This document shows positions 4,198-10,340 of a stretch of 64,000 bases of DNA, one piece after another (positions within the stretch are counted from its first letter, which is position 1; each line of letters opens with the position of its first letter). The position numbers and the translations under genes were made by a program. The stretch comes from Thermoflexus hugenholtzii JAD2 (GTDB lineage Bacteria; Chloroflexota; Anaerolineae; J036; Brachytrichaceae). The notes under the pieces were generated by a model that was not told the DNA's origin, did not search any database, and saw only the letters and a list, made by a program, of their open reading frames with translations. The DNA is taken from positions 1 to 64,000 of the forward strand of contig CAMDWA010000004.1 of assembly GCA_945877855.1 (NCBI GenBank). The letters are read 5' to 3'.

Positions 4198-5031
4198 CTA
4201 AGCCATAATCGACACCAATTTCAAGGTGTGACTCGCCAAGGTTAGATCACCTTGCAAGCTTACCAAAGGCAGGGCGGCCTCAATTGACATGCCTTTGCTA
4301 AATAAACGCCATGCTACCTCATCAGACATGATAAGGTGCGCCGAGGGCTTTTGAATGCCCCCTGTGAAGAGTTTCCAGCTATTTTGGGTATGCAATAACG
4401 CCCATACCCCACCCGCTGGCCCTGTGATTTCGACTGTGACCATTTTGCCATCATCATCGGCTATATTACGATAGGTGTGCGGTAACCCACGGATGAAAGT
4501 GTCGATTACCGGCGCTAGCCATTCGCGCGAGGCCAATATGGGCCAGCCGACAGCCTCGCGGATGTGTTGTTGGTGCAGCCATTTTTCGGTATATTCGCGG
4601 GCGATATCGAACCAGTTGGGTGGCAACGCATCGCTGGCCCATGCCACGCTAATCGGGGCTAAGGCGTACGGGGCGAGGCCATTAAAATGCTCATATAAAT
4701 GTTGATCGGTCAGTGCGAGCAATTCAATCAATATTTGGGGGCTGATACGTTTTGCCGCCTGTATCCACAAGGCATTTTCGCGGTTGATGAGGTCGAGCAG
4801 GTCGTCGTAACCGAGCGTTGGTTTGGGCGATGACGCAGGTTGTGGGCTAGGTTTTCCAATTCGCCCAAGATTGCCACCCAGCAAATGCGCCGCTACATCT
4901 TTTACCGTCCACGGGGCACATGCCGTCATTTTTGCCCAATCAGCAGGCGTTAGCGTTTTTAGCAGGCCGATTAACTCATGGCTAAGCGGCTGAAAAAGGT
5001 GGGTGGTATGAATAGGTTCAAGCGCCTTCAT
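4198..5031 (-). CDS. Maleylpyruvate isomerase N-terminal (MDMPI/DinB-like) domain protein
   Basis: A 277-residue protein of the DinB-like four-helix-bundle superfamily, closest in style to mycothiol-dependent maleylpyruvate isomerase family proteins. The first 50 residues have the pattern LTPADWAKMTACAPWTVKDVAAHLLG, whose His is a usual metal ligand. The C-terminal 90 residues resemble the SCP-like half of this family (WRLFSKGMSIEAALPLV). The gene overlaps the upstream M81 gene by ATGA (5028-5031), so the two are translationally coupled and probably co-expressed with csaA. The substrate is unknown. Many such proteins use mycothiol or bacillithiol, but no thiol-cofactor gene is nearby. Confidence 0.75.
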   Translation of the reverse strand: MKALEPIHTTHLFQPLSHELIGLLKTLTPADWAKMTACAPWTVKDVAAHLLGGNLGRIGKPSPQPASSPKPTLGYDDLLDLINRENALWIQAAKRISPQILIELLALTDQHLYEHFNGLAPYALAPISVAWASDALPPNWFDIAREYTEKWLHQQHIREAVGWPILASREWLAPVIDTFIRGLPHTYRNIADDDGKMVTVEITGPAGGVWALLHTQNSWKLFTGGIQKPSAHLIMSDEVAWRLFSKGMSIEAALPLVSLQGDLTLASHTLKLVSIMA

Positions 5032-6572
5032 GATTGCACATAAACAGTGGGCTGTAAATTGGGGATGGACTCATCGAGCGGAAAGAAAGGTCGCTGCATC
5101 CTTTGATAAGGTAAATGGCGGGTGGTGGCGGGAGTAGGGCCGGGCGTATCGACAATAAACGAGGCTTTGGCAACCCCAGCGTAGGCCATGTTGTAATTCA
5201 TGGGGTTTTTTACCCCCACAAATTTGGCTTGCCGCACATCCATACCCGCGCAGCGATATTGCTCATCGGCCCAATCGTAGGTTGGGCGCGACATAATGAG
5301 CACTTGAAATGGCCCAATTTGCAAGACAGCAGACAAGCCCATTTGCCCACGTGTGCCGCCATAAATACCACCACTATAGGTAAACTCGCCATCAAAAAGA
5401 TGACGCACCACCCCACTTACTTGCAGTGGCGCACCCCATTGGGCATCGACCGTATAACCGAGCGTGGTGTTGACTGTGCCACCAATGCCTGCCTTAGCGC
5501 AGGCTTGGGCGGCGGCTGGGTCAACCACCATTAACATGGTCGGTTCGGTTACGCCCAACTCGGTGAGGGTGCGCAAGAGGCTGACGCTGTCGCCAGCCGA
5601 GCCACCGCCGACACAATCGGCGGTATCGACCAACAAAATTGGGCCGCCACTGATACCGCGCCCACGTTGCACCGCATCGGCAACGGCATACAAGCGCGGT
5701 TCAAATTCAGTTCGTCGTGCCCAAATTTCATTTGCCAAACGGGTGGCTTCCCGCGCCGCAAGATCGGGGTCATTGTCGGTGATGACCAATGCGCCGCAGC
5801 CCATCTCGGGCAAATCGTTGTAAGGGTGCACATGTAAAATCGACACTGATAACACCCCTGTTTGCTTTTCCAATTCACGCGCGGCGGCGGTCAAGTAGGC
5901 CATTGGGCAGTTTTTGGCGTGCCAATCGCCCGAGGTGCGGCCATTGCCGCCGCCACACAAAATGGGCACTTTGGCAAAAGCCATGTTGGGGCGGGTGTGG
6001 CCTGCAATGGCTGGCAATAACAATTTGACCGCTTTTTCGCCGGTTTGATAGCAATCGTCGTGCGGGTAATGTTCAAACGCCAGCAGTGCGGTAGCATGGC
6101 TGACCATTGTTTGGGTGAAATGGGCATGTAAATCAAAGGTAGCGACAATCGGCACAGTTGGCCCGACAATGTGGCGCACTGCCATAATCAAATCCCCTTC
6201 CACATCTTCCACCCCCTCGGCCACCATCGAGCCGTGCATCGGCAAAATGATGCCATCAACCCCGCCATCACGCATGGCCTCACGCAAGGGCGTGAGCAAT
6301 AGGCTTTTGAGCGTGTCGTAACATTCGGCGCTGTTGATGGGGCCAGACACGCACCGCGCCGCCAGCAATGGCACAACTTGCACCGGCTGCCCACATTGCG
6401 CCAGCGCTGCCAAGATGCCAGCGATTTCAGAGTCGCTGTCGCGCAATTTAAACATATCGCCTCGTTCATAAATAAACGTATTGCGCCAAAGATCGAGGGT
6501 AGTGCGGGCCGCTAAAAAGGTGTTGGTCTCTTGAAAAATAGAGCCAATGGCAATGCGAAGGGGTGTTTTCAT
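5028..6572 (-). CDS. M81 family metallopeptidase (MlrC-like)
   Basis: A protein of the MlrC family (Pfam DUF1485 plus MlrC C-terminal domain), named for the zinc peptidase that degrades linearised microcystin fragments; most members have unknown natural substrates. About 514 residues, as usual. Visible motifs are IFQETNTF at the N-terminus, LPMHGSMV, the metal-site stretch DLHAHFT, and FEHYPHDDCYQTG. ATG 6572 (MKTPLRIAIG) matches family starts; the eight residues upstream are not needed. It follows csaA by 20 nt and overlaps the next gene by 4 nt, indicating one operon. With the M19 and M20 peptidases elsewhere in the window it fits a peptide-scavenging lifestyle. Confidence 0.88.
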   Translation of the reverse strand: MKTPLRIAIGSIFQETNTFLAARTTLDLWRNTFIYERGDMFKLRDSDSEIAGILAALAQCGQPVQVVPLLAARCVSGPINSAECYDTLKSLLLTPLREAMRDGGVDGIILPMHGSMVAEGVEDVEGDLIMAVRHIVGPTVPIVATFDLHAHFTQTMVSHATALLAFEHYPHDDCYQTGEKAVKLLLPAIAGHTRPNMAFAKVPILCGGGNGRTSGDWHAKNCPMAYLTAAARELEKQTGVLSVSILHVHPYNDLPEMGCGALVITDNDPDLAAREATRLANEIWARRTEFEPRLYAVADAVQRGRGISGGPILLVDTADCVGGGSAGDSVSLLRTLTELGVTEPTMLMVVDPAAAQACAKAGIGGTVNTTLGYTVDAQWGAPLQVSGVVRHLFDGEFTYSGGIYGGTRGQMGLSAVLQIGPFQVLIMSRPTYDWADEQYRCAGMDVRQAKFVGVKNPMNYNMAYAGVAKASFIVDTPGPTPATTRHLPYQRMQRPFFPLDESIPNLQPTVYVQS

Positions 6573-6592
6573 GTTTAATATAGTCGAAAAGA

Positions 6593-6949
6593 TCAACCAG
6601 CACGGGTTCCGTTCGGCACTGTGCGTTCGGGCATGGCTAAGACCGGTATGAGGCCATCGGCATACCCGATGTCAAATAACATGCCCTCTGAAACCTCGCC
6701 CATAATTTTTTTGTGAGGCAAATTGAGCACAAACAAGGCTTGTTTGCCCTCAATCTCCTTGGGGTCTTGGCGCTCTTGTTTCATGCCAACCAAAATATTG
6801 CGTTTGTGATCGCCAAAATCAACAATCAGGCGCAGCATCTTTTCTGAGTTTGGCATGTCCTCAACCCGTTCGATGGTGCCGACGCGAATGTCGATTTTTT
6901 TGAGCACATCAAAAGAAATTTTCGGTTTGATGGGGGCGATTTGTGTCAT
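6593..6949 (-). CDS. csaA: CsaA-like tRNA-binding domain protein
   Basis: A 118-residue protein consisting of one EMAP-II/Trbp-type oligonucleotide-binding fold, as in CsaA, which is proposed to act as an export chaperone or tRNA binder in the cytoplasm. Features are FDVLKKIDIRVGTI at the start, RNILVGMK in the middle, and the C-terminal block EGMLFDIGYADG followed by PVPNGTRAG-like residues (TVPNGTRAG). It heads the minus-strand operon with the M81 and MDMPI-type genes. A -10-like TACAAT lies only 6 nt before the ATG and no Shine-Dalgarno is visible, so the mRNA is probably leaderless. Confidence 0.88.
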   Translation of the reverse strand: MTQIAPIKPKISFDVLKKIDIRVGTIERVEDMPNSEKMLRLIVDFGDHKRNILVGMKQERQDPKEIEGKQALFVLNLPHKKIMGEVSEGMLFDIGYADGLIPVLAMPERTVPNGTRAG

Positions 6950-7028: not shown

Positions 7029-7072
7029 AGCCTGCCTTCGCAGGCTAAGAATTTAGACCGCGAAGGCGGTCT
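7029..7072. repeat. Inverted pair of 7-bp tetraloop hairpins
   Basis: Hairpin one, 7029-7046: AGCCTGC-CTTC-GCAGGCT. Hairpin two, 7055-7072: AGACCGC-GAAG-GCGGTCT. The loops are complementary. Reading the second on the other strand gives AGACCGC-CTTC-GCGGTCT, so the two differ at two stem positions with matching changes on the partner side. The pair lies between the aminotransferase fusion gene (ends 7105) and csaA, and may end transcription of the former. Confidence 0.8.
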
Positions 7073-7104: not shown

Positions 7105-9372
7105 TTAGCGCATTGCCGTCGCCAATACATTCGCCATTATTTCAATGGCAACTCCCGCCTCAGCGGGGTTAAGAATGAGCGGCGGCGCTAAGCGCACCGC
7201 ACTGGGGCCAGCGCTCAGCACCAGCAAGCCTTGCTCAAAAGCAATTTGTTGCACACGATCACGCAATTCACCATCTTCGCAATTGCCACCGGCCTGTTTC
7301 ACAAAATCGAGACCGATCATCAACCCGCGCCCGCGCACATCGCCCAAACGCGGGAACTCGGCCTTTAGCTCATTCATGCCATTCATTAACACCGACCCAA
7401 CATGGGCAGCGTTATTGGTTAGCTCGCGTTCAACCAAATCGAGCGTGGCATGGGCGGCGGCGCAAGATACGGCGTTGCCGCCAAACGTGCTGCCATGCGC
7501 CCCGGCTTGCCATGTCATCAATTCTTTGCGAAACAAGGTTGCGCTGAGCGGGTAGCCGCTGGCTAGGCCTTTGGCCAGCACTACCACGTCGGGTTCGATG
7601 CCCTCATGCTCAAAGGCAAAAAATTTGCCGGTGCGCCCAACCCCCGTTTGCACCTCGTCCATAATCAGCAAAATGCCATATTCTTTGGCTAAAGCCTGTA
7701 GTTTTTGAATAAACCCGGGCGGTGGCACAATATAACCGCCTTCACCTTGAATTGGCTCCATCACAATGGCGGCCACATCTTCGGGGGCACAACTGGTTTT
7801 AAACAGATGCTGAATATGCGCAAGCACGGCATCGCCACAGGTGGCGGCGCTGCTGCCCAAGGGCGGGCGAAATGGATTGGGGAATGGCACATGCGTCACG
7901 GGATATGCCATCGCCCCAAACCCTTTTCGATACTTGGGGTTGCTGGCTGTTAATGACAACGAACCAGCGCTACGCCCATGAAACGAACCTGTAAATGCCA
8001 TGAAGTTTGGGCGCTTGGTGTGATAACGCGCAAACTTCAAAGCCACCTCAATGCCTTCGGTGCCGCTGTTGCCAAAAAACACCTTATAGTTGTTGTTTAG
8101 CTTGGCGCTTAGGCGCTCTGCCAACGAAATAACCGGATCGTGCGGAAAAACTGCCGCGCACATATGCGTCATTTTTTGCGCCTGCTCGGTCACTGCCCGC
8201 ACCACGTGGGGGTGGGCATAGCCGGTCGTGCTGACGGCGATCCCGGCCATCAAATCCAAAAATTCATTGCCGTCCACATCCGTAATCCAAACGCCATTGC
8301 CGCGCTCGGCCACAATGGGTATACCCTTGCCGTTGCTGCTGCTCATCACTGCTGCCTCACGCGCCAGCGCCGCTTGGGCGCGTGGCCCGGGCAGGGCGGT
8401 TTTTACACTGGGGCGCTTGGGGTGAATGGGAGATGCAGCGGGCAGGTTGCCATTGAGATTGGGTTGGCGCACAGCGGTTTGGCTGCTAAAAGTGCTTTCA
8501 AAAATCTTGTCGGCATTACCGGCCTCAAAGCCCTCACGGCGCATGGCGCGGGTGATGTCGGTCTTGGCGATGTGGGCATAGGCTGGCATCACCCGCCGCT
8601 CGGCAAATTCGACATAGCTACCGGCGATCATGTGTTTTTCGCCACCGGCAAATTCGGCTTCGATCATTTCGGCCACTGTGCTCGATTGCAACAGCAGCCC
8701 ATCCGGGCTTTGCTTGACTTCGCCGCCGCTGGTGTTTAGTTGCACCCCATTGTGTTTTAAAAATTGGTTAAATTGGGCACAGGTGTCATACCCATTCGGC
8801 AAATTGTGCACACTAATGGTGTAATGATTGAGATAGTAGCGGTTATAAATGACCCATGCGGCATATTCGCTTTCGCCCATCAGGGTGCTAAATTCGGCAT
8901 AAGTGGGCAATGACCATAAAGAGCGGTGCAAAAAGCCATCAACGGCGGCGGCATCGTCTAAATTAAGCGCTAAAACAGGGTCGGTTTTAACCTGATCGGT
9001 ATATTGGGTGATGATGCGTTGTGCCGTGGCGCTTAGCTCGGTCACCCGTAATTCGCTGATAAAAATACGAGGAAATTGCGGGGTGGGGGGTGAATACCAG
9101 AAGGCGTCTAGCTTTTTTTGCGCAAAATGATATTTTTCGCGTCTTTCATAGCCATAATGTAAGAAGATTTTTTCGAGGCTTTGAATACCCAATTGTGGCA
9201 CACCCATGGTGCGAAAGGCAATATGATCGTTTTCGATATCATCGGCCCTGTTGATCAACCCTTCACGTTGCATTATTGTCGTAATGTGGGCGACATCGGG
9301 AACCCGTTGCTGATATCGCCGCATCAGCCCAGCTAAAACGTTGTGGAGGGTTGAAGATTGAGGTGTGTTCAT
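7105..9372 (-). CDS. Fusion of DUF1338 (2-oxoadipate dioxygenase type) and class III aminotransferase
   Basis: A two-domain enzyme of about 755 residues. Residues 1-305 match DUF1338, the family of HglS, an Fe(II) enzyme converting 2-oxoadipate to D-2-hydroxyglutarate in lysine catabolism; likely metal ligands are His in NDHIAFR, His in NHYTISV and Glu in SYVEFAER, plus the family block NADKIFEST. After a 40-residue linker, residues 345-755 form a fold-type I class III PLP aminotransferase, with FFGNSGTE, MDEVQTGVGRTG and the PLP lysine in VLAKGLASG (about residue 600). ATG 9372 is chosen over GTG 9384. The gene diverges from a LysR regulator across an 83-bp region. Lysine or 2-aminoadipate breakdown is the likely role; the amino donor is not determinable. 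Confidence 0.88.
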   Translation of the reverse strand: MNTPQSSTLHNVLAGLMRRYQQRVPDVAHITTIMQREGLINRADDIENDHIAFRTMGVPQLGIQSLEKIFLHYGYERREKYHFAQKKLDAFWYSPPTPQFPRIFISELRVTELSATAQRIITQYTDQVKTDPVLALNLDDAAAVDGFLHRSLWSLPTYAEFSTLMGESEYAAWVIYNRYYLNHYTISVHNLPNGYDTCAQFNQFLKHNGVQLNTSGGEVKQSPDGLLLQSSTVAEMIEAEFAGGEKHMIAGSYVEFAERRVMPAYAHIAKTDITRAMRREGFEAGNADKIFESTFSSQTAVRQPNLNGNLPAASPIHPKRPSVKTALPGPRAQAALAREAAVMSSSNGKGIPIVAERGNGVWITDVDGNEFLDLMAGIAVSTTGYAHPHVVRAVTEQAQKMTHMCAAVFPHDPVISLAERLSAKLNNNYKVFFGNSGTEGIEVALKFARYHTKRPNFMAFTGSFHGRSAGSLSLTASNPKYRKGFGAMAYPVTHVPFPNPFRPPLGSSAATCGDAVLAHIQHLFKTSCAPEDVAAIVMEPIQGEGGYIVPPPGFIQKLQALAKEYGILLIMDEVQTGVGRTGKFFAFEHEGIEPDVVVLAKGLASGYPLSATLFRKELMTWQAGAHGSTFGGNAVSCAAAHATLDLVERELTNNAAHVGSVLMNGMNELKAEFPRLGDVRGRGLMIGLDFVKQAGGNCEDGELRDRVQQIAFEQGLLVLSAGPSAVRLAPPLILNPAEAGVAIEIMANVLATAMR

Positions 9373-9410: not shown

Positions 9411-9427
9411 AATCAAAATTTTTGATT
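9411..9427. promoter_or_regulatory. Dyad AATCAAA-N3-TTTGATT, probable LysR operator
   Basis: A perfect 7-bp dyad lies midway between the divergent fusion gene (ATG 9372, minus) and the LysR gene (ATG 9456, plus). Position and A+T-rich inverted symmetry fit a LysR-type site controlling both directions. A TATTAT/ATTATA stretch directly before ATG 9456 may be the -10 of the regulator. Confidence 0.55.
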
Positions 9428-9455: not shown

Positions 9456-10340
9456 ATGAACAAACCACTTGACCTTGATCAATTGGCTACATTTAAGGCG
9501 GTAGCGCAACAACTCAGTTTTACGGCGGCGGGTAAGGGGCTGGGTATGGCCCAGAGTAGCGTAACCGCCCAAATTCAAACGTTAGAGCGTCATGTGGGGG
9601 TGGCGTTGTTTGATCGGTTGGGCAAAAAAGTGGCGCTAACCGATGCCGGGCGCAAGCTGTTGGGGTATGCCGAACAATTGCTGACGATTGAGGCCGAGGC
9701 CCGTCAGATGATTGGTGGCGGCAATAGTGAGCAAATTCGGATTGGCGCGCCAGAGACATTGTTGGCGTATCGCTTGCCGTTGGTGTTGCGCCAATTTCGC
9801 CAAGCCATGCCCGGGGTGAAGCTGGTGCTGAAGCCCGGCATCAGTGCCCATTTGCGCGAAGAGGTGCGCGAGGGGCGGCTCGATTTTGCGTTTACGCTTG
9901 ACCATATTAGCCAACACCCGATGTTGCACAGCCAAGTGTTGCGCCCAGAGCCGGTGGTGCTGATCGCCCCGCCCAATCACCCACTAAGCCTGTTGCCAGC
10001 AGTGCACCCTGCCGATTTGAGTAACGAAACGCTGTTGCTGACCGAGGCCGGTGGCAGTTATCGCATGGCGTTTGAACATGCTTTGTCTGAGGCTGGGGTT
10101 GTGCCAGCCGATGTGCTGGAGTTTGCCAGCATTGAGGCCGAGATTCAGTGCGTCATGGCGGGGTTGGGCATTGCGGTTTTGCCCGAGGTGGCGGTGCGTG
10201 AAGATGTGGCGCGGCAGCGGGTGGCGATTTTGGCGTGGCAGGGGCTGCCGCTGGGCGGGTATATGCAAATGGTGTGGCACAAAGACAAGGTGTTTGGGGC
10301 GGCGTTGCAGGTGCTGCGTGATTTGGCGGGGGTGGGGTAA
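9456..10340 (+). CDS. LysR family transcriptional regulator
   Basis: A 294-residue DNA-binding regulator. Residues 5-65 are the LysR winged helix-turn-helix (LDQLATFKAVAQQLSFTAAG, then SSVTAQIQTLERHVGVALF), followed by a periplasmic-binding-like effector domain (from about residue 90). It is divergently transcribed from the DUF1338-aminotransferase gene, the classical layout for a LysR regulator and its target, with a dyad in the shared region. Lysine, 2-aminoadipate or 2-oxoadipate would be logical co-inducers, but this is inference. Its stop codon is followed without a gap by GGGGATT heptamers, which also encode the end of the convergent Fic gene. Confidence 0.92.
   Translation: MNKPLDLDQLATFKAVAQQLSFTAAGKGLGMAQSSVTAQIQTLERHVGVALFDRLGKKVALTDAGRKLLGYAEQLLTIEAEARQMIGGGNSEQIRIGAPETLLAYRLPLVLRQFRQAMPGVKLVLKPGISAHLREEVREGRLDFAFTLDHISQHPMLHSQVLRPEPVVLIAPPNHPLSLLPAVHPADLSNETLLLTEAGGSYRMAFEHALSEAGVVPADVLEFASIEAEIQCVMAGLGIAVLPEVAVREDVARQRVAILAWQGLPLGGYMQMVWHKDKVFGAALQVLRDLAGVG

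What the first reader, a model, noticed from the sequence alone, without database searches (positions are those of the whole stretch)
7105..9372. DUF1338 dioxygenase fused to a class III aminotransferase
Seen: one uninterrupted frame with all key residues of both domains. Known: HglS-type DUF1338 enzymes act on 2-oxoadipate, a transamination product of 2-aminoadipate. Inference: the fusion channels an amino acid to D-2-hydroxyglutarate in two steps. Class III enzymes usually attack the terminal amine, while the 2-oxoadipate route needs the alpha-amine, so either the aminotransferase has alpha specificity, as some archaeal relatives do, or the fusion covers non-adjacent steps. The divergent LysR gene with a dyad suggests substrate induction.
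Basis: partly seen in the sequence, partly recalled or inferred. Interest (0 to 1): 0.66.

Follow-up and report, generated by a model that had tools for sequence, protein, structure and literature searches.

The report
Fused lysine-breakdown enzyme: aminotransferase plus oxygenase
One bacterial gene joins an amino-group-removing enzyme to the oxygenase that turns 2-oxoadipate into D-2-hydroxyglutarate in lysine breakdown; both enzymes are of known kinds, but the joining was found only in one genus of Chloroflexota and is probably a two-step catalyst for the end of that pathway.

Summary
Window 9372-7105 (minus strand) is one open frame of 755 codons: a DUF1338/HglS domain (PF07063, E 9e-65), a 16-residue linker and a complete class III aminotransferase (PF00202, E 5e-122). 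A second genome of the genus carries the same fusion (85% identical), with a divergent LysR gene, so it is not an assembly or frameshift artefact. The oxygenase half is close to rice FLO7, a proven 2-oxoadipate dioxygenase, and keeps its metal triad and substrate arginine. In Calidithermus both proteins are separate genes 13 bases apart, with ends that match the fusion's. Relatives of the DUF1338 gene sit beside lysine-dehydrogenase-like, piperideine-6-carboxylate-dehydrogenase or (once, 3.7 kb away) LysN-type genes, which ties it to lysine breakdown. What the aminotransferase uses is open. It is in the subfamily of archaeal ornithine/lysine omega-aminotransferases, one of which accepts 2-oxoadipate, and it fails the models for 2-aminoadipate and lysine-6 aminotransferases. 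I favour 2-aminoadipate to 2-oxoadipate to D-2-hydroxyglutarate (0.55). The main rival is that the aminotransferase half removes lysine's terminal amine. This is a new domain arrangement of known enzymes, not a new kind of system.

The parts
7105..9372 (-). fusion ORF, 755 aa: DUF1338/HglS-type oxygenase joined to a class III aminotransferase
   Evidence: second species L044
8464..9372 (-). oxygenase part, residues 1-303; metal triad H50, H183, E255, substrate arginine R54
   Evidence: PF07063 219.9 bits; PDB 6w1k E 3.7e-61; same end (QTAVRQ) as the separate Calidithermus protein
8416..8463 (-). interdomain linker, residues 304-319 (PNLNGNLPAASPIHPK), different and shorter in L044
   Evidence: comparison with Calidithermus ends and with L044
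7108..8415 (-). class III aminotransferase part, residues 320-755; K601, D572, R467, E544, R727
   Evidence: PF00202 407.9 bits; NF004426 581.5 bits, cut-off 552; alignments
9411..9427 (.). dyad AATCAAAA-T-TTTTGATT containing a T-N11-A LysR-type box; candidate operator
   Evidence: partly conserved in L044; 3.4% of shuffles
9456..10340 (+). divergent LysR-family regulator gene, the only neighbour seen conserved with the fusion
   Evidence: PF00126 and PF03466; 79% identical ortholog in the same place in L044

Best explanation
It is a bifunctional catabolic enzyme for the end of the lysine (2-aminoadipate) route. The aminotransferase half would move the alpha-amine of L-2-aminoadipate to 2-oxoglutarate, giving 2-oxoadipate and glutamate. 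The Fe(II) oxygenase half then uses O2 to convert 2-oxoadipate to D-2-hydroxyglutarate and CO2. Oxidation of D-2-hydroxyglutarate by a separate dehydrogenase would return the 2-oxoglutarate used by the first half, so the net change is 2-aminoadipate to glutamate. Supported by sequence: both folds, their catalytic residues, the fusion, and the lysine context of this DUF1338 clade. Inferred: the aminotransferase's substrate, any channelling, induction through LysR, and the dehydrogenase step.
For: The oxygenase half aligns with FLO7 (6w1k), whose 2-oxoadipate activity and 2-oxoadipate-bound structure are published, and it keeps the arginine that the authors take as the marker of this reaction (PMC7286885). 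In 35 of 77 related loci a saccharopine/lysine-dehydrogenase-like gene, and in 27 of 77 an aldehyde dehydrogenase, lies within 400 bp on the same strand; the representative tested is over the cut-off of the L-piperidine-6-carboxylate dehydrogenase equivalog. Such operons supply the steps to 2-aminoadipate and lack the step to 2-oxoadipate, which is what an adjacent aminotransferase would add. In one Deinococcales contig that role is probably filled by a LysN-type 2-aminoadipate aminotransferase 3.7 kb from DUF1338. In two Calidithermus species the pair is separate neighbouring genes (13 nt apart in L047), beside a GntR gene. A 53% identical GntR gene stands beside a DUF1338/aldehyde dehydrogenase/LysDH-like cluster in L103. 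The aminotransferase has the Glu/Arg pair (E544, R727) plus R467 of glutamate-using class III enzymes, and archaeal TK2101 is listed as accepting 2-oxoadipate. The window genome has a piperideine-6-carboxylate dehydrogenase (786.9 bits, cut-off 730).
Against: The aminotransferase fails the 2-aminoadipate transaminase model NF049976 (288.8 bits, cut-off 650) and shares NF004426 with an ornithine/lysine omega-aminotransferase. Close relatives in the same family (L045, L046; 66% and 64%) occur in genomes where no DUF1338 was found, so the aminotransferase lineage is not tied to 2-oxoadipate. No D-2-hydroxyglutarate dehydrogenase of the YdiJ type was found among the FAD-oxidase_C proteins, only GlcD-like ones. 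Piperideine-6-carboxylate dehydrogenase occurs in 17 of 28 family members, so it is no specific sign. No biochemical data exist.
Confidence: 0.55

Rival explanations
1. The aminotransferase half is a lysine (or ornithine) omega-aminotransferase that makes 2-aminoadipate semialdehyde, so the fusion joins the first and last committed steps of the route; the dehydrogenase and the 2-aminoadipate aminotransferase are separate enzymes.
For: Same NCBIfam family as PH1423 (7vno, 705 bits), whose listed donors are ornithine and lysine. The genome shows no LysDH-like gene (its only PF16653 hit lies in a protein that looks like homospermidine synthase by eye) and no lysine-6-transaminase over cut-off; the fusion is the best hit in the genome to that model (177.8 bits, cut-off 520.8). 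In other lineages the direct partner of DUF1338 is often the enzyme that removes lysine's terminal amine (LysDH-like; kinase plus phospholyase-like).
Against: It would join non-adjacent steps. The segment THMCAAVFPHDP differs from the HAAGTDYYNP of PH1423 and resembles GabT, so PH1423's preference may not carry over. The genome is only 79% complete, so absences are weak.
Confidence: 0.25
2. One aminotransferase active site serves both ends: it takes the terminal amine from lysine and, after the separate dehydrogenase step, the alpha-amine from 2-aminoadipate, handing 2-oxoadipate to the oxygenase.
For: TK2101 of the archaeal relatives is listed with lysine as donor and 2-oxoadipate as acceptor, which suggests one active site can handle both C6 ends; no LysDH-like or lysine-6-transaminase gene was found in the genome.
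Against: No kinetic data, and TK2101 was recorded with 2-oxoadipate as acceptor, the reverse of the catabolic direction.
Confidence: 0.12
3. The fusion is a chance or neutral joining of two neighbouring genes, and the aminotransferase acts on an unrelated omega-amino acid (for example GABA or 3-aminoisobutyrate).
For: GabT-like segment in the active-site region; the nearest relatives without DUF1338 lie near acyl-CoA carboxylase genes (L045, L046).
Against: The pairing recurs in another phylum as a tight two-gene unit, and both halves keep all catalytic residues in two fused species (halves 81% and 88% identical).
Confidence: 0.06
4. The C-terminal half is an amino-acid racemase of the archaeal type rather than an aminotransferase.
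For: Its best PDB hit by sequence is an alanine/serine racemase (9wqz).
Against: Fails the racemase model (338.6 bits, cut-off 639). The racemase has Q and D where this protein has R467 and E544.
Confidence: 0.02

Closest known systems
FLO7 / HglS, 2-oxoadipate dioxygenase/decarboxylase (PF07063, hydroxyglutarate synthase)
   Same: Fold family, His-His-Glu metal triad and substrate arginine; FLO7 (6w1k) is the closest solved structure.
   Different: FLO7 and HglS are not described as fused to an aminotransferase; no activity has been measured here.
Archaeal ornithine/lysine omega-aminotransferases PH1423 (7vno) and TK2101
   Same: PH1423 and this protein are both over the NF004426 cut-off; the Glu/Arg pair and R467 are shared.
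   Different: Separate tree clade; active-site segment THMCAAVFPHDP instead of HAAGTDYYNP; fused to an oxygenase. TK2101's own sequence was not compared here.
Calidithermus DUF1338 + class III aminotransferase gene pair (L047, L048)
   Same: Both proteins 61-72% identical to the two halves, same order, same ends, 13 nt apart in L047.
   Different: Two proteins, and a GntR rather than LysR neighbour. A common origin of the pairing is neither shown nor rejected (AU p 0.105).
2-aminoadipate aminotransferases: class III type (NF049976) and LysN/AADAT type (class I)
   Same: Proposed reaction; a LysN-type gene lies 3.7 kb from DUF1338 in Deinococcales contig L149.
   Different: The fusion is far below the NF049976 cut-off, and LysN belongs to another aminotransferase class (PF00155).

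Membership tests
PF07063 2-oxoadipate dioxygenase/decarboxylase (HglS/FLO7) | profile match over the curated cut-off | tested here: met
   219.9 bits, cut-off 25
PF07063 2-oxoadipate dioxygenase/decarboxylase (HglS/FLO7) | His-His-Glu metal triad | tested here: met
   H50, H183, E255 aligned to 6w1k
PF07063 2-oxoadipate dioxygenase/decarboxylase (HglS/FLO7) | arginine that binds the distal carboxylate (Arg74 HglS, Arg64 FLO7) | tested here: met
   R54
PF07063 2-oxoadipate dioxygenase/decarboxylase (HglS/FLO7) | O2-dependent conversion of 2-oxoadipate to D-2-hydroxyglutarate | not testable with these tools
   needs an assay
NF004426 class III aminotransferases (contains PH1423) | score over the curated cut-off | tested here: met
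   581.5 bits, cut-off 552; PH1423 705 bits
NF004426 class III aminotransferases (contains PH1423) | PLP lysine, aspartate and Glu/Arg pair | tested here: met
   K601, D572, E544, R727
NF004426 class III aminotransferases (contains PH1423) | omega-transamination of ornithine or lysine | not testable with these tools
   needs an assay
2-aminoadipate transaminase NF049976 | score over the curated cut-off | tested here: not met
   288.8 bits, cut-off 650
L-lysine 6-transaminase TIGR03251 | score over the curated cut-off | tested here: not met
   177.8 bits, cut-off 520.8
alanine/serine racemase NF004171 | score over the curated cut-off | tested here: not met
   338.6 bits, cut-off 639; residues at the aligned R467 and E544 also differ from 9wqz

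The most novel reading that the evidence does not exclude
One polypeptide acts at both ends of lysine's conversion to D-2-hydroxyglutarate: the same aminotransferase site takes the terminal amine from lysine and later the alpha-amine from 2-aminoadipate, then passes 2-oxoadipate to the attached oxygenase, leaving only one separate dehydrogenase in the route.
Probability: 0.12. Interest if true: 0.6.

Novelty: new variant of a known kind. Interest (0 to 1): 0.4.

Why it matters
The aminotransferase that feeds 2-oxoadipate to DUF1338 enzymes is missing from most of the gene clusters seen here. A fusion names a candidate, of a subfamily now labelled only 'acetyl ornithine aminotransferase family'. 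It turns pathway membership of that subfamily into a simple assay, and it offers a natural single-chain catalyst for D-2-hydroxyglutarate. No description of the fusion was found in the searched papers, but that library is partial.

Tried and rejected
Racemase reading: rejected on model score and residues. Artefact of assembly or frameshift: rejected by the second species. Piperideine-6-carboxylate dehydrogenase as a co-occurrence marker: present in 17 of 28 family members, so uninformative. Its absence by cut-off in the Deinococcota and Chloroflexaceae genomes tested is also not informative, since DUF1338 neighbours in Deinococcota are more distant aldehyde dehydrogenases. One origin of the pairing in Calidithermus and in this genus: the tree separates the DUF1338 parts, but holding them together is not rejected (p 0.105). 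The promoter scan found nothing. Structure prediction of the whole chain was not run: the mixed alignment misplaces the aminotransferase rows (A3), and both folds are already clear from sequence. The mBio 2019 Pseudomonas putida paper and the TK2101 paper are not held, so the TK2101 substrates rest on a table in PMC9986279. A note of mine (item d) that the palindromes at 7030-7072 recur elsewhere was wrong: the reverse-strand positions are the same site.

Full report
OBSERVATION. The minus-strand frame 9372-7105 is a single open frame of 755 codons. Pfam assigns PF07063 (now named 2-oxoadipate dioxygenase/decarboxylase) to residues 13-262 and PF00202 (class III aminotransferase) to residues 347-750, both far over cut-off. 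The window lies in a 4.4 Mb draft genome of 246 contigs, 79% complete. A second species of the same genus (G001; public contig JAHBAL020000412, Anaerolineae AQU-02) has the same fusion at 85% identity, with an ortholog of the LysR gene (79%) divergent beside it. The downstream neighbours differ, so the conserved unit is LysR plus fusion. The two halves are 81% and 88% identical between the two species. The linker is PNLNGNLPAASPIHPK here and shorter and different in L044, as expected for a tether.

HOW RARE. Within the family, 2 of 28 genomes have any DUF1338 domain, both in this genus and both fused. In a draw of 400 genomes of the phylum, 13 have DUF1338 and only the window's is in a long frame; the others are 206-329 aa. 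A scan of the 84,980-species collection gave one other fused record, L044. It used short peptide patterns, so distant fusions could be missed. In 111 genomes of the Calidithermus order, 12 have DUF1338, none in a frame over 366 aa.

ANATOMY OF THE OXYGENASE HALF. By sequence its nearest solved structure is 6w1k, which I identify as rice FLO7 from the paper's account of that structure and from my own knowledge; FLO7 was solved with 2-oxoadipate bound and converts it (PMC7286885). H50, H183 and E255 fall on the metal ligands and R54 on the arginine that holds the distal carboxylate. In that paper the arginine is the specificity determinant and the basis for predicting the same reaction across the family. 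I put about 0.93 on 2-oxoadipate as its substrate.

ANATOMY OF THE AMINOTRANSFERASE HALF. It carries the PLP lysine (K601), D572, and the R467, E544 and R727 set that class III enzymes use to bind glutamate and 2-oxoglutarate (alignments; roles from established knowledge of GABA and ornithine aminotransferases). It is over the cut-off of NF004426 and below those of the 2-aminoadipate, lysine-6 and racemase models. PH1423, characterised as an ornithine aminotransferase that also takes lysine, scores 705 bits on NF004426. A table in PMC9986279 lists TK2101, the Thermococcus ornithine omega-aminotransferase, with 2-oxoadipate among its acceptors. So the subfamily plausibly handles lysine at the terminal amine and 2-aminoadipate/2-oxoadipate at the alpha position. 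The window protein and its clade differ from PH1423 in one active-site segment, which looks like GabT, so specificity cannot be read off. The clade holds the two fusions, two stand-alone family relatives (L045, L046), a Deinococcales protein and the Calidithermus proteins (support 99/100).

CONTEXT. In 77 related DUF1338 loci, mostly Bacteroidota, a saccharopine/lysine-dehydrogenase-like gene stands within 400 bp on the same strand in 35 and an aldehyde dehydrogenase in 27. The Chitinophaga aldehyde dehydrogenase tested is over the L-piperidine-6-carboxylate dehydrogenase cut-off. L149 (Deinococcales) has DUF1338, an aldehyde dehydrogenase and a LysN/AADAT-type aminotransferase. Calidithermus has DUF1338 and the class III aminotransferase 13 nt apart. 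Its GntR neighbour is 53% identical to one beside a DUF1338, aldehyde dehydrogenase, LysDH-like cluster in L103. These contexts tie this DUF1338 clade to lysine and 2-aminoadipate breakdown. They leave open whether the class III enzyme replaces the LysDH-like step or supplies the 2-aminoadipate step.

MECHANISM. Favoured: L-2-aminoadipate + 2-oxoglutarate gives 2-oxoadipate + glutamate (aminotransferase half); 2-oxoadipate + O2 gives D-2-hydroxyglutarate + CO2 (oxygenase half). The dehydrogenase step that would regenerate 2-oxoglutarate is assumed; the genome has GlcD-like candidates only. Fusion of adjacent steps is the usual pattern, and this is the step missing from the clusters. I give it 0.55, against 0.25 for the lysine omega-amine reading and 0.12 for both.

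ORIGIN. The ends of the separate Calidithermus proteins (QTAVRQ stop; MKPSVK start) match the two sides of the fusion linker, so the fusion joins two whole proteins. The DUF1338 tree does not group the fusion with Calidithermus, but grouping is not rejected. One transfer of a gene pair, or two independent pairings, are both possible; the second would strengthen the functional link.

NOVELTY. Both halves are known kinds. The arrangement is not in the papers found. I rate it a new variant of a known kind, of moderate interest.

Noticed in passing
L112:4918-7227 (+) and L094:4837-7188 (+): A phosphotransferase (APH) domain fused to an ethanolamine-phosphate/phosphohydroxylysine phospholyase-like class III domain (closest PDB 6tor) lies directly upstream of DUF1338; in L112 an aldehyde dehydrogenase follows. 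This looks like a hydroxylysine-breakdown operon in Bacteroidota.
   Followed up: partly
L047..L123 (77 DUF1338 loci): A saccharopine/lysine-dehydrogenase-like gene (356 aa in L122, with no NCBIfam match) is the commonest direct neighbour of DUF1338 in these mostly Bacteroidota loci (35 of 77).
   Followed up: partly
L045:1899-3218 and L046:407-1717: Closest stand-alone relatives of the fused aminotransferase, in genomes with no DUF1338 found; both contigs also carry a biotin-carboxylase-like gene near by, and L045 a carboxyltransferase and a thiolase (read by eye), so they may serve another omega-amino acid.
   Followed up: no
L103:5222-5875: GntR regulator 53% identical to the one beside the Calidithermus gene pair, here next to DUF1338, aldehyde dehydrogenase and LysDH-like genes: a candidate lysine-catabolism regulator.
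   Followed up: partly
window 7029-7072: Two adjacent short palindromes (AGCCTGCCTTCGCAGGCT and AGACCGCGAAGGCGGTCT) lie 3' of the fusion, each found once in the window; possibly a terminator or a repeat element.
   Followed up: no
L044:1520-1610: The spacer between LysR and the fusion in the second species holds a roughly 60-base hairpin, absent from the window, that looks like a small inserted inverted repeat.
   Followed up: no
window 5028-6596 (-): M81/MlrC-family metallopeptidase gene (best NCBIfam hit is microcystinase MlrC at 164 bits, far below its cut-off of 999), next to a small tRNA-binding-domain gene (6593-6949).
   Followed up: no
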